Assembly (NCBI RefSeq): GCF_009834025.1
Contig: NZ_CP047156.1
Coordinates: 1,984,001-2,048,000 of the forward strand
DNA from: Epidermidibacterium keratini
GTDB taxonomy: Bacteria > Actinomycetota > Actinomycetes > Mycobacteriales > Antricoccaceae
DNA length: 64,000 bases
Reading direction: 5' to 3'
Made by a program: the position numbers and the translations under genes. Below, in pieces: positions 7,124 to 11,022 of the stretch (positions are counted from its first letter, which is position 1; each line of letters begins with the position of its first letter). The notes beneath the pieces are model-generated. The model searched no databases. It was not told the origin of the DNA and saw only the letters and a program-made list of their open reading frames with translations.

Positions 7124-8214
7124 TGACGTTTTCGGAGTTCGACGAGACCCGTCCGCCGCAGCCGCCACGCAAACGGCGTGGCGGCGGCCGGCGCCCCGGC
7201 GGTGCTCTGAAGCGGCGCCGCGATGACGGCACCGCCGAGCTGTCGATGGTGCCCGAGCCAGAGTTCACGTCGTACTACGGGCGCGCGGTGGTCAAGCCGC
7301 CGCCGTGGGAAGAGGAGATCGCGGCGTACCTCTTCCTCGGAGGCGTCGCGGGCGGCTCGGGGCTGCTGGCCTTTGGCGCGCAGCTGACCGGGCGCACGCT
7401 GCTGCGGCGCAACGCTCGTCTTGGCGCGCTCGGTGCTGTCTCGCTTGGCGCCGTCGCGCTGGTGAAGGACCTCGGGCGACCCGAGCGGTTCCTGAACATG
7501 CTGCGCACCATCAAGCTGACCTCGCCGATGAGCCTGGGATCGTGGATCCTCAGCGGGTTCAGCGGTGCGATGGGCGTCGCGGCAGTCGCCGACATCGACC
7601 GGATGACCGGCAAGCGGCTGCCGCTCGGACCGTTGCGGCCGATGCTGTACGCCGTCGAGGCGCCGGCCGGTGCGGGAGCCGCGGTGTTTGCGACCCCACT
7701 CGCGGCGTACACCGCCGTCCTGCTCTCCGACACCGCGGTGCCGACGTGGAACGACGCGCACCGCGACCTGCCGTTCGTCTTCGTCAGCTCGGCGAGCCTT
7801 GCCGCGTCGGGTCTGGCGATGGTGACCACGCCGGTGTCCGAGGCCGGTCCGGCGCGTCGGCTCGCGGTGCTCGGAGTGGTCGGTGACGTCGCGGCGACCC
7901 GCTACATGGAAAGCCGGATGGATCCGGTCACCGTCGAGCCGCTGCACGAGGGCAAGTCCGGGAAGATGATGAAGTGGGCCGAACGCCTCGCCGTACTCGG
8001 CGGCATCGGCACGCTCGTCGGCGGACGCAACCGGCTCGTCGCCGCAGCATCCGGGGTGTCACTCATGGCGGCGTCGGCGTTGACCCGCTTCGGGGTGTTC
8101 GAAGCCGGCATCCACTCGGCGAAGGACCCGAAATACACGATCGAGCCACAGCGCCGCCGCCTCGAGGCACGCCGCGCGGCGGGCGAGACCGGCGACTCCA
8201 TCACCACTGCCTAA
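7123..8214 (+). CDS. NrfD-type membrane subunit of formate dehydrogenase (quinone reductase)
   Basis: A 363-residue integral membrane protein of the NrfD/polysulfide-reductase C family, predicted to pass electrons from FdhB to menaquinone. The first 60 residues are polar and Pro/Arg-rich (RKRRGGG); the membrane part begins with EIAAYLFLGGVAGGSGLLAF, a family hallmark, and several hydrophobic helices follow. It replaces the b-type cytochrome FdnI of E. coli, as is usual in actinobacteria. The ATG at 7123 overlaps the fdhB stop (ATGA). The operon ends here, followed by a hairpin terminator. No fdhD or molybdenum-cofactor gene is nearby. Confidence 0.88.
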   Translation: MTFSEFDETRPPQPPRKRRGGGRRPGGALKRRRDDGTAELSMVPEPEFTSYYGRAVVKPPPWEEEIAAYLFLGGVAGGSGLLAFGAQLTGRTLLRRNARLGALGAVSLGAVALVKDLGRPERFLNMLRTIKLTSPMSLGSWILSGFSGAMGVAAVADIDRMTGKRLPLGPLRPMLYAVEAPAGAGAAVFATPLAAYTAVLLSDTAVPTWNDAHRDLPFVFVSSASLAASGLAMVTTPVSEAGPARRLAVLGVVGDVAATRYMESRMDPVTVEPLHEGKSGKMMKWAERLAVLGGIGTLVGGRNRLVAAASGVSLMAASALTRFGVFEAGIHSAKDPKYTIEPQRRRLEARRAAGETGDSITTA

Positions 8215-8227
8215 CCCCGAAAAAGAC

Positions 8228-8268
8228 GCTGCGACCCGAGCCATCGCAGAGATAACTCAGGTCGCAGC
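8228..8268 (-). terminator. Intrinsic terminator between convergent genes
   Basis: Bases 8228-8240 (GCTGCGACCCGAG) pair with 8256-8268 (CTCAGGTCGCAGC), 13 pairs with one G-T. On the minus strand the stem is followed by a T tract (GTCTTTTTCGG), the standard rho-independent layout for the small gene ending at 8287. It may also stop transcription from the fdh operon. The core TGCGACCTGAG recurs in the terminator at 9798-9838. Confidence 0.8.
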
Positions 8269-8286
8269 GCCGGGTGCTTCGCGTGC

Positions 8287-8592
8287 TTACACGCGTGGCG
8301 CCATACTGTCGTTCCACGTGGTACCCAATGGGTAGCTGCCGCCGAAGGCGTTGGCGCACACCGCGTATGCGGCGCCGTTATCGAGAGCCCACTGCTTGGC
8401 GTCCTCACACTGCTCTTGGGTGTCGTACCAGTCGATGCAGGCCGCCCCGCCGCTTCCCTCGATGTCAATACACTTGGGATTCCCCGGTAGCCCCGGTCCC
8501 TCCGCGCTCGCCGGTCCAGCGGCAAAAAGTGTTGCGCCACCGGCAATCGCGATGGCTCCGATGGTCTTCGTCGTCCTGCGTAGGAAACTCAC
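8287..8592 (-). CDS. Small secreted four-cysteine protein, copy 1
   Basis: A 101-residue protein with a Sec signal peptide: VSFLRRTTKT, then a hydrophobic stretch GAIAIAGGATLFAAGPASA, and likely cleavage after ASA. The mature part of about 70 residues has four cysteines (PKC, AAC, EQC, AVC), suggesting two disulfides, and ends SMAPRV. I chose the GTG at 8592 because AAGGAG lies just upstream and the paralogue at 9861-10175 starts at the same place. The two copies share almost identical signal-peptide DNA but divergent mature parts. The family is not recognised; a secreted inhibitor, toxin or envelope factor are all possible. Confidence 0.78.
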   Translation of the reverse strand: MSFLRRTTKTIGAIAIAGGATLFAAGPASAEGPGLPGNPKCIDIEGSGGAACIDWYDTQEQCEDAKQWALDNGAAYAVCANAFGGSYPLGTTWNDSMAPRV

Positions 8593-8716
8593 AGTCTCAC
8601 TCCTTGTAGTCGATGTCAGATGCACAAGGGGGCTGGTAGTACGTCGTCCTGAGACCGTCTTGTAGTTCCAGCGTCGCCGCAATCCAACATGCCTTTCACC
8701 ACTGCGTAGCACGCGG

Positions 8717-9712
8717 TTAACGCATCTGCAGGATCGTCCGGCCGAGCGCTGAGCGGTCCTCGATCGCGGCGTGAGCCTGGACTGCCTGCTCGAGCGGAAA
8801 CGTCTGACCGATCACCGCCCGCAGCCTGCCGTCGGCCAGCTCGGCCTGGGCGCGATGGCCGACCGCCTCCCAGTCGGCGGTCTGCGCGGTGATGTCGGAC
8901 AGGCTGAGCACGGTGATGTCGCGGGCGGCCGCCGCGTCAGCGTCGATTGCCGCGAAGTCGCCTGCGGCGGCGCCGTACCCGAGGAAGATGCCGCCGTCGG
9001 CCCCGGCGTTCAGCGCTTCGCCGCCGAGCGCACCGCCAGCGCCGTCGAAGACGACATCCGCGCCACCGCCGGTGATCTCGCGGACCTGCTTCTCCCACCC
9101 ATCGGCCCCGTAGTCGATGACGGTGTCGGCGCCGAGACGCTGTGCCAGCGAGAGCTTCTGCTCTCCCCGCGCAGCGGCGACCACCTTGGCACCGGCTGAT
9201 ACTGCCAGCTGGGTGAGTAGCGTGCCGAGACCGCCGGCGGCGGCCGTGATGAGGACCCAGGACTCCGGCTGCACGGCAGCACGATCGAATACCGCGAGCG
9301 CCGTCCTCCCGTCGGCCACCATCGCGACGCTGTGTGCGGTCGGCACATTGGCCGCGACTTCCATCAGCGTGCTGGTCTTGGCCAGCGCCTGCTCGGCGTA
9401 CCCGCCCGTGGGCAGGCCACCACCGATGCCGCTGGCGGCGGTGCGACTGACAACGCGCTTGCCGAGCCACCCGGCCTCGGCGTCATCACCCACGGCGGCG
9501 ACGACCCCACCGACGGCGCCGCCAGGGATGTAGGGCAGTTCTAGAGGGAAGAAGTCCAGACCCCAGCCGCTGCGTAGTCGCGTGTCGAGGAACATGACAT
9601 CGGCGGCCTCGACGTCGATGAGCACCTCGCCCTGACCGGGTTGTGGCGCCGGGAGATCGACGACCTCGAGGACCTCCGGGCCGCCGAACTTCTTGACCTG
9701 CACTGCACGCAT
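8717..9712 (-). CDS. Zinc-type alcohol dehydrogenase-like quinone oxidoreductase
   Basis: A 331-residue medium-chain reductase of the quinone oxidoreductase class, predicted to use NADPH to reduce quinones or enals. It has the N-terminal GroES-like domain (MRAVQVKKFGGPEVLEVVDL) and a Rossmann NADPH site, VLITAAAGGLGTLLTQLA, at about residues 140-160. No structural zinc cysteine cluster is seen, as expected for this class. The ATG at 9712 follows AAAGGAG; an upstream in-frame start would run through the promoter. A SoxR-type operator-promoter lies 34-64 bp upstream, which suggests induction by redox-active compounds. It stands alone between the two secreted-miniprotein genes. Confidence 0.88.
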   Translation of the reverse strand: MRAVQVKKFGGPEVLEVVDLPAPQPGQGEVLIDVEAADVMFLDTRLRSGWGLDFFPLELPYIPGGAVGGVVAAVGDDAEAGWLGKRVVSRTAASGIGGGLPTGGYAEQALAKTSTLMEVAANVPTAHSVAMVADGRTALAVFDRAAVQPESWVLITAAAGGLGTLLTQLAVSAGAKVVAAARGEQKLSLAQRLGADTVIDYGADGWEKQVREITGGGADVVFDGAGGALGGEALNAGADGGIFLGYGAAAGDFAAIDADAAAARDITVLSLSDITAQTADWEAVGHRAQAELADGRLRAVIGQTFPLEQAVQAHAAIEDRSALGRTILQMR

Positions 9713-9745
9713 TGCTGCTCCTTTGGCTGTTGCTGGTGTGCACCA

Positions 9746-9776
9746 AGCATGAAATCTCAAGCATGCTTGAGGTCAA
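9746..9776 (-). promoter_or_regulatory. SoxR-type (MerR-family) operator-promoter
   Basis: On the minus strand TTGACC (-35, 9776-9771) and CATGCT (-10, 9751-9746) are separated by 19 bp, the overlong spacer typical of MerR-family promoters. The spacer holds a perfect 16-bp palindrome, CTCAAGCATGCTTGAG (9756-9771), that closely matches the SoxR box CCTCAAG-N4-CTTGAGG. It drives the quinone oxidoreductase gene. SoxR itself is not in the window. Confidence 0.72.
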
Positions 9777-9797
9777 GCCCAGAATTGCGCGCAATGG

Positions 9798-9838
9798 TGT
9801 GCGACCTGAGCTACCGCAGTGGCAGCTCAGGTCGCACA
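9798..9838 (-). terminator. Hairpin terminator after the second secreted miniprotein gene
   Basis: A perfect 15-bp inverted repeat, TGTGCGACCTGAGCT (9798-9812) with 9824-9838, encloses an 11-base loop that can itself pair CC with GG. It follows the stop at 9861 on the minus strand. There is no long T tract. It shares the core TGCGACCTGAG with the terminator after the first copy, so the terminator seems to have been duplicated with the gene. Confidence 0.7.
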
Positions 9839-9860
9839 GGTTGCCTCGGTTGGTCGGCGG

Positions 9861-10175
9861 CTAGACGCGCGGCGCCATGTCATCAGCCCACGCCGTCTGC
9901 AGCGTCACCCACGGCTCGCCGAAGTACGTGATGCAGAACGAACCCGCCTCCAGAGCGCCATTGTCGATCGCCCACTGCTTGGCGTCCTGGCACTGCTCCT
10001 CAGTGTCGTACTTGTCTTCGCAGAAGGTCGTATTTTGTGACTCGTCGTAGGTGCATTGCGGGTTTACCGGGAGCCCCGGTCCCTCCGCGCTCGCCGGTCC
10101 AGCGGCAAAAAGCGTTGCACCACCGGCAATCGCGATGGCACCCAGAGTCTTGGTCGTGGTTCGGAGGAAGGTCAT
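9861..10175 (-). CDS. Small secreted four-cysteine protein, copy 2
   Basis: A 104-residue paralogue of the gene at 8287-8592. The signal peptide is nearly identical (MTFLRTTTKTLGAIAIAGG, cleavage after ASA). The mature part keeps the EGPGLP start, four cysteines (PQC, TFC, EQC, SFC), the block QCQDAKQWAIDNGA and the end DDMAPRV, but differs between these anchors. The ATG at 10175 follows GAAGGAAC. Bases 10072-10139 match 8489-8556 at 66 of 68 positions. The untranslated leader upstream is also alignable. Function unknown; export and disulfide folding are inferred. Confidence 0.8.
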   Translation of the reverse strand: MTFLRTTTKTLGAIAIAGGATLFAAGPASAEGPGLPVNPQCTYDESQNTTFCEDKYDTEEQCQDAKQWAIDNGALEAGSFCITYFGEPWVTLQTAWADDMAPRV

Positions 10176-10302
10176 TATCTCGTTCCTTCAGAGTCGACAT
10201 CAGATTCACTCGGGGGCTTTCGGTATGTCGTTGCGAGGTTGCCGCGCAGTTCCGAGTCGACCAAGATCCAGCACGCGTTTTACACGCGCTCGGGTGCGAG
10301 CC

Positions 10303-11022
10303 TCAGCCGGTGAGAGCGGAGACGACCGCCGCGACCGTGATGGTGTTGAAGATGAAGGCGATGACGGCATTGCCGGTGACGGTACGACGCATCTCCGGTG
10401 AGGTGACGCTGACGTCGGTGGTGCCAAATGTGGTCATCACCGACACTGCGAAGTAGATGTAGTCGGCCCACTCGACGCCTGCGCTGCCTGGAAAGTCGAG
10501 CCCCTTACCGTCCTCGACAAGGTTGTCGGCGTGGAACGCGACCGCAAACGAGATCATCACGCACACCCATGCGACGACGACCAGCGAGAGCGCGACGCCG
10601 ATGCGCGCGCTCGTCGGCAGTGAGGTGCCGCCGTACCCCGGCATCCAGACGACCGCGACGGCCATCGCGGCCGCCGAGATGAAGAGTGAGATCCCCGGGC
10701 CCGGTGCCGTACCGAGGATGTAGCGCTGCAGCACGGTTCCGCGACTGTCGCGGTGAGCCCACTCGCGCACCTCGGCGTCGGGCGCCTGCGAAAACACCTT
10801 GAGCGTAATGAGCATGTAGGTGACGAGATAGGCCAGGAGCACGATCACGCCGCCGTCGGCACCGGTGAAGACCGCGTCCTGGGCGCGCAGAATGATGACG
10901 ACGATTGCGGCGACGAGGGCCACTAGTAGCGACGTACCTGCGCGCCGGCGCTCCGAGAGCCATCCGTGATAGCGGTTGTGCTTCTCAGGCTTCTTCGTCG
11001 AACGTGCGGTGTCGGTAGCCAT
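10303..11022 (-). CDS. DUF1345-family membrane protein
   Basis: A 239-residue predicted inner-membrane protein. After a basic N-terminus ([14 protein letters not shown]) there are about five hydrophobic segments. The C-terminal block [21 protein letters not shown] followed by [16 protein letters not shown] is the recognisable DUF1345 signature. The loop resembles a two-helix potassium-channel filter but lacks a clear TVGYG, so I do not call it a channel. No function is established for the family. It is transcribed away from selB, with 115 bp between the two starts. Confidence 0.82.

What the first reader, a model, noticed from the sequence alone, without database searches (positions are those of the whole stretch)
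9746..9776. SoxR box with 19-bp spacer at a quinone oxidoreductase gene
A perfect palindrome CTCAAGCATGCTTGAG sits between TTGACC and CATGCT with the overlong spacer diagnostic of MerR-family activation. In Streptomyces, SoxR controls quinone and redox-active-compound genes, so the regulon logic fits. It also lies between the two secreted miniprotein genes.
Basis: partly seen in the sequence, partly recalled or inferred. Interest (0 to 1): 0.5.

Follow-up and report, generated by a model that had tools for sequence, protein, structure and literature searches.

The report
SoxR-type promoter of quinone reductase gene

Summary
On the minus strand the sequence reads TTGACC, a 19-bp spacer, then CATGCT (9776 to 9746); the perfect 16-bp palindrome CTCAAGCATGCTTGAG overlaps the end of TTGACC and fills most of the spacer. 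It points at a quinone oxidoreductase-like gene (8717-9712, minus strand).

The genome has two genes above the curated SoxR cut-off, both with the four-cysteine motif. A -35-plus-box pattern matches 11 times (control 2); nine of these matches are eight promoters. One lies between soxR1 and a divergent MFS gene; one precedes an MFS gene that overlaps soxR2. The rest precede an ABC transporter, an NmrA-like oxidoreductase, an aldo/keto reductase, this gene and two less clear ones.

The box is a footprint: 34 of 54 homologues in other genomes of the class have it upstream (3 or fewer mismatches; reversed and coding controls 0). Among 39 hits at 4 or fewer mismatches, 34 have A2 and T6 of the -10 at spacer 19, none at other spacers tested.

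SoxR control of a quinone oxidoreductase is published for Streptomyces. This is a new member of a known kind, in a genome that is probably not Streptomyces. Binding and induction are untested.

The parts
9771..9776 (-). -35 element TTGACC
   Evidence: Read directly; TTGACC in nearly all of the 39 homologous promoters found, but TTGA and CC were part of the selection
9755..9772 (.). SoxR-type box, 18 bp CCTCAAGCATGCTTGAGA on the minus strand; perfect 16-bp palindrome at 9756-9771
   Evidence: found upstream of homologous genes
9746..9751 (-). -10 element CATGCT, after a 19-bp spacer
   Evidence: Read directly; A2 and T6 at spacer 19 in 34 of 39 homologous promoters, 0 of 39 at each other spacer from 14 to 25
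9718..9724 (-). Likely ribosome-binding site AAAGGAG
   Evidence: Read directly, 5 nt before the ATG
8717..9712 (-). Quinone oxidoreductase-type gene (MDR superfamily, 331 aa, no cysteine), the likely target
   Evidence: Pfam ADH_N, ADH_zinc_N, ADH_zinc_N_2; best NCBIfam match is the PIG3 quinone oxidoreductase family, below cut-off; best solved match is a probable quinone reductase Qor, 4rvs; 0 cysteines
9798..9838 (-). 18-bp hairpin, perhaps the terminator of the upstream miniprotein gene; no T-run after it
   Evidence: -41.6 kcal/mol for the folded 66 nt, z -7.17; not called as a terminator by the T-run scan; a related hairpin with a T-run is at 8225-8271, after miniprotein 1
9861..10175 (-).
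   Evidence: No Pfam or NCBIfam family; 66% identical to miniprotein 1; no match at E 1e-4 in the 60 other genomes searched; secretion not tested
8287..8592 (-). Miniprotein 1, downstream of the oxidoreductase gene; possible read-through target
   Evidence: Paralogue of miniprotein 2; the 124-nt gap before it folds no better than shuffles (z +1.56)

Best explanation
The element is a SoxR-dependent promoter of a quinone oxidoreductase-like gene. A SoxR dimer sits on the palindrome between -35 and -10, which are 19 bp apart and so too far apart for the polymerase. When redox-cycling compounds oxidise the [2Fe-2S] cluster, SoxR distorts the DNA, brings the two elements into register, and the gene is transcribed. 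The enzyme would then reduce the quinone or dye while transporters of the same regulon pump it out. Shown here: the promoter layout, its conservation, two SoxR genes, and about eight like promoters in the genome. Inferred from known SoxR and MerR proteins: binding, cluster, redox switch, inducer, enzyme activity, export, and which of the two SoxR proteins acts here.
For: Layout and palindrome. Two SoxR genes over the curated cut-off; C-x2-C-x-C-x5-C motif; best solved match for both is E. coli SoxR 2zhg, E 4.9e-42 and 5.9e-42. Regulon: 11 pattern matches (9 of them in eight promoters), control 2; one between soxR1 and an MFS gene; one 58 nt before an MFS ORF whose end overlaps the start of soxR2 by 26 nt. 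Specificity: within 1500 bases a box is found at soxR1 and at 0 of 14 other MerR-domain places: (soxR2 also has none within 1500 bases; its box is 1574 bases upstream). Footprint: 35 of 55 upstream regions including the window's own (19 of 29 in the order, 16 of 26 in the class), 0 of 55 reversed, 0 of 55 coding, 0 of 1100 shuffles. Spacer 19 in 34 of 39. Boxes within 80 bp of soxR, divergent, in 6 of 32 SoxR loci. Co-occurrence: all 34 class genomes with the enzyme have SoxR, against 107 of 212 without it. Literature: SoxR binds the promoter of a S. coelicolor quinone oxidoreductase gene (PMC4146615: abstract, passages, discussion); SoxR of S. maltophilia binds a CTCAAC-type box (PMC4411124, passages).
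Against: One relative, G028, has the enzyme with a box (2 mismatches) but no SoxR at E 1e-35. Most homologous boxes have CTCAAC, not CTCAAG, arms (position 11: C 23, G 11 of 39), and the exact -35-plus-CTCAAG form was found in only 4 of 61 genomes while 45 of 61 have SoxR. 20 of 55 upstream regions lack a box at 3 or fewer mismatches, 15 of 55 at 4 or fewer. In this genome only 5 of the 8 promoters have both A2 and T6 in the -10. 26 of 32 SoxR loci have no box within 80 bp. The co-occurrence test ignores ancestry and genome size, scored only the best 8 (enzyme) or 15 (SoxR) candidates per genome, and assumes that the two calls drew the same 246 genomes. No binding or expression data.
Confidence: 0.9

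Rival explanations
1. Another MerR-family activator, sensing aldehydes, drugs or thiols, uses the same box and controls the gene.
For: The genome has 16 MerR-domain matches. The arms vary among relatives. G028 has box and enzyme without SoxR at E 1e-35. In G016 a MerR-like ORF flanks the enzyme gene.
Against: Within 1500 bases no box is near the 14 non-SoxR MerR-domain places, and one is at soxR1; another heads the transcription unit of soxR2. A MerR-like ORF was found beside 1 of the 30 enzyme genes scanned (own included; the 26 class loci were not scanned), and that one has no box. 34 of 34 class genomes with the enzyme have SoxR. Co-occurrence of other MerR proteins was not tested.
Confidence: 0.07
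2. The palindrome is a chance repeat with no function.
For: 15 of 100 shuffles of the window hold at least one match with up to 3 mismatches; with one mismatch allowed the bare palindrome is only 9 against 4 in the genome.
Against: A like box at the same place in 34 of 54 homologues, 0 in reversed and coding controls, and an exactly conserved spacer.
Confidence: 0.01
3. The palindrome is the operator of an unrelated dimeric repressor such as a TetR- or MarR-type protein.
For: Palindromes are common operators. One box precedes a 154-aa ORF that looks MarR-like by eye but has no Pfam match.
Against: A repressor operator needs no 19-bp spacer; the conserved spacer and the link to soxR point to MerR-type activation.
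Confidence: 0.02

Closest known systems
SCO0320ext / SLI_0274 / SAV_4018 quinone oxidoreductase genes of Streptomyces (PMC4146615)
   Same: Quinone oxidoreductase gene with a SoxR box in its promoter; SoxR shown by gel shift to bind the S. coelicolor promoter (paper, passages and discussion).
   Different: The S. coelicolor gene is frameshifted and only 23 percent of homologues in a survey of 55 Streptomyces species have a box (paper); here the gene is an open frame in a 4.02-Mb genome with two SoxR genes. Orthology was not tested.
soxR-mfsA head-to-head pair of Stenotrophomonas maltophilia (PMC4411124, passages)
   Same: SoxR gene divergent from an MFS gene with the box at the MFS promoter, as at soxR1 here; SoxR there binds a CTCAAC-type box.
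   Different: Gammaproteobacterium (recalled); the box at soxR1 here has CTCAAG arms.
E. coli soxRS
   Same: Box CCTCAAGTTAACTTGAGG (as quoted in PMC4411124) in an overlong spacer, with soxR divergent from its target.
   Different: The gene divergent from soxR1 is an MFS gene, not soxS, and the transporter and enzyme genes carry boxes themselves, as in Streptomyces.

Membership tests
SoxR-activated promoter | 18-bp inverted repeat close to CCTCAAGNNNNCTTGAGG | tested here: met
   13 of 14 fixed positions; perfect 16-bp core
SoxR-activated promoter | Box between -35 and -10, which are 19-20 bp apart | tested here: met
   Spacer 19; conserved -10 at spacer 19 in 34 of 39 homologous promoters
SoxR-activated promoter | SoxR encoded in the same genome | tested here: met
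   Two genes over the cut-off
SoxR-activated promoter | SoxR binds and oxidised SoxR activates | not testable with these tools
   Needs gel shift and expression assays
SoxR regulator (soxR1, soxR2) | MerR-type DNA-binding domain | tested here: met
   PF13411, PF00376, PF09278 in both
SoxR regulator (soxR1, soxR2) | C-x2-C-x-C-x5-C cluster motif | tested here: met
   CIGCGCLSMKSC and CIGCGCLSMKAC, aligned with 2zhg
SoxR regulator (soxR1, soxR2) | Redox-active [2Fe-2S] cluster | not testable with these tools
   Needs purified protein
NADPH:quinone oxidoreductase (MDR superfamily) | GroES-like plus nucleotide-binding domains | tested here: met
   PF08240, PF00107, PF13602 over their cut-offs
NADPH:quinone oxidoreductase (MDR superfamily) | No zinc site | tested here: inconclusive
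   No cysteine in the protein, which fits; other ligands not examined
PIG3 quinone oxidoreductase subfamily (TIGR02824) | Curated cut-off of 296.8 bits | tested here: not met
   150.1 bits; so not filed as PIG3

The most novel reading that the evidence does not exclude
The two SoxR paralogues divide the regulon by box arm. SoxR1 (GNQRR in the wing, beside a CTCAAG box) would take sites such as the one in the window. SoxR2 (TNHRL in the wing, headed by a CTCAAC...GTTGAG box) would take others, giving two redox responses in one cell. Read-through from the oxidoreductase gene might also make one orphan miniprotein redox-inducible.
Probability: 0.15. Interest if true: 0.5.

Novelty: new member of a known kind. 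Interest (0 to 1): 0.25.

Why it matters
It predicts a SoxR regulon of transporters and redox enzymes, of the kind worked out in Streptomyces, in a smaller actinobacterial genome with two SoxR genes. It shows that this box recurs before this enzyme's homologues across the class, and gives a clean 19-bp-spacer footprint for choosing further targets.

Tried and rejected
One search scanned loci before turning those of minus-strand matches; it is superseded and used for no count. The single genome-contig scan found one relative only (Nocardia higoensis, 59%), so named species could not be surveyed; its upstream region has a box with 3 mismatches but was left out of the counts. A link between arm base and SoxR wing residues was looked at in 32 SoxR loci (30 of the 49 places, plus two loci of the own genome); too few have a box nearby to decide, and for one locus (L091) my pattern read no protein. 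Chance, another MerR protein and a repressor operator were considered and rejected as stated under rivals.

What was counted. Order set: 29 places in 22 genomes, own included. Class set: 40 places matched, 30 got loci, 4 of these were already held; 26 were scanned and 10 were not. I had seen the order set before I fixed the box criterion; the class set I had not seen. The two genome samples share a few genomes (G000, G023, G059, G030 among those with the enzyme), so the two co-occurrence tests are not independent.

Papers. Searches: (3 papers; 34, 15 listed), on 'two SoxR' (2), on SoxR, Mycobacterium, quinone oxidoreductase and MerR (6), on 'SoxR box' (3), on SoxR, Rhodococcus, Nocardia and quinone (1), (26, 12 listed). 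In these listings I saw no SoxR regulon worked out in an actinobacterium outside Streptomyces. Three listed papers were opened in passages: PMC3534580 names a soxR homologue in Arthrobacter sp. Rue61a and presumes a regulon against exogenous redox compounds; PMC13405713 speaks of a soxS/SoxRS response to an Arthrobacter gene, not of an Arthrobacter SoxR regulon; in PMC5288332 the terms sought came up only in the reference list. PMC5045206 (passages) covers metal-sensing MerR proteins. The other listed papers were seen as titles and abstract starts only. Subscription journals are mostly not held.

Full report
Observation. The palindrome CTCAAGCATGCTTGAG is at 9756-9771. Read on the minus strand the stretch is TTGACC, 19 nt, CATGCT; 33 nt further on is the ATG at 9712 of a 331-aa gene with AAAGGAG 5 nt before it. 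Within the window alone chance is not strongly excluded (15 of 100 shuffles hold a match at up to 3 mismatches), so I turned to the genome and its relatives.

The regulator. The genome (4.02 Mb, one contig) has two genes over the curated SoxR cut-off, at 2231266 and 74003 (186.8 and 181.7 bits; next best MerR protein 45.6). Both have the cysteine motif, CIGCGCLSMKSC or CIGCGCLSMKAC, and match E. coli SoxR (2zhg) best among solved structures. Of 14 control genomes the model exceeds its cut-off in 1, E. coli.

The regulon. CTCAAGNNNNCTTGAG occurs exactly 4 times in the genome; with one mismatch 9 sites, against 4 for the reversed pattern. TTGACCTCAANNNNNNTTGAG with up to 2 mismatches gives 11 matches, against 2 for the reversed pattern. 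Nine of the 11 make up eight promoters, one palindrome being matched on both strands. The other two have 2 mismatches each and look like chance, one by eye lying within a response-regulator gene. The eight promoters precede: an MFS gene (72427-73968) whose end overlaps the start of soxR2 (73943) by 26 nt; an aldo/keto reductase; an NmrA-like or epimerase-like NAD(P)-binding protein; the window's oxidoreductase; a DUF5318 gene whose start is uncertain; an ABC transporter; a 154-aa protein without a Pfam match; and an MFS gene divergent from soxR1. All eight have T6 of the -10 at spacer 19, five of eight A2 as well. Of the 26 loci held for MerR-type genes (16 places, some loci overlapping, 1500-base flanks) only the two that show soxR1 hold a box; the box of the soxR2 unit is 1574 bases before soxR2 and so outside its locus.

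The footprint. Criterion: TTGA (up to 1 mismatch) directly before an 18-mer with at most 3 of 14 mismatches to CCTCAAGNNNNCTTGAGG, within 200 bases upstream. It is met by 19 of 29 homologues in the order (22 genomes, own included) and 16 of 26 in the wider class; with 4 mismatches allowed, 24 and 16. The same regions reversed, and coding sequence, give 0 of 55 each at both limits; shuffles give 0 of 1100 and 3 of 1100. I had seen the order set before fixing the criterion; the class set is the clean test. In the 39 hits outside this genome (4 or fewer mismatches) A2 and T6 of the -10 lie at spacer 19 in 34, and in 0 at each other spacer from 14 to 25. This is the strongest evidence for MerR-type activation. 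The commoner arm in relatives is CTCAAC (23 of 39), and the exact -35-plus-CTCAAG form is in only 4 of 61 genomes; SoxR of S. maltophilia binds a CTCAAC-type box (PMC4411124, passages). Six of 32 SoxR loci have a box within 80 bp upstream, pointing away; G040 adds a further case at 50 bp.

Co-occurrence. All 34 class genomes with the enzyme at E 1e-55 have SoxR at E 1e-35, against 107 of 212 without it (26 of the 34 also checked by handle, 26 of 26; Fisher p 1e-9). In the order sample it is 21 of 22 against 24 of 39 (p 0.005). The samples overlap a little, ancestry and genome size are not controlled, the searches scored a capped number of candidates per genome, and I assume the two class calls drew the same 246 genomes. 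G028 is the exception: enzyme and box, no SoxR.

The enzyme. It has the ADH_N and ADH_zinc_N domains, no cysteine, and resembles quinone reductases best; activity is not shown. The four other genomes of its family have no match at E 1e-40; the nearest homologues (63% and 59%) are in another family, and Nocardia higoensis has one of 59%. Gain by transfer with its promoter, or loss in relatives, are both possible.

The neighbours. The two miniproteins are 66% identical; their upstream stretches and following hairpins are alike too, and the oxidoreductase gene lies between the two modules. The hairpin at 9798-9838 may stop transcription from the upstream module, though it lacks a T-run. The stretch between the oxidoreductase gene and miniprotein 1 folds no better than shuffles, so read-through is possible but untested.

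Comparison. In S. coelicolor SoxR controls an ABC transporter, redox enzymes and a quinone oxidoreductase, SCO0320ext, whose promoter SoxR binds (PMC4146615). The set found here is similar in kind, with two MFS genes added.

Noticed in passing
8200-8720 and 9780-10300, minus strand: Two copies of a module (upstream stretch, miniprotein, hairpin) flank the oxidoreductase gene; the proteins are 66% identical and had no match at E 1e-4 in 60 other genomes.
   Followed up: partly
L002 and L104 (genome 72369-74437): Second SoxR gene, overlapping the end of an MFS gene that has a CTCAAC-type box; its wing residues differ from SoxR1 (TNHRL instead of GNQRR).
   Followed up: partly
L102 (genome 2231209): soxR1 is divergent from an MFS gene with a box between them, like soxR-mfsA of S. 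maltophilia.
   Followed up: yes
L105, L097 and L102: At the aldo/keto reductase, NmrA-like and soxR1-divergent MFS genes the ATG begins only 6-7 nt after the -10, so the mRNA may be leaderless; several relatives' enzyme genes look the same.
   Followed up: no
L053 (G028): Oxidoreductase gene with a box (2 mismatches) in a genome without a SoxR match at E 1e-35.
   Followed up: no
10303-11022, minus strand: DUF1345 protein gene next to the miniprotein module.
   Followed up: no
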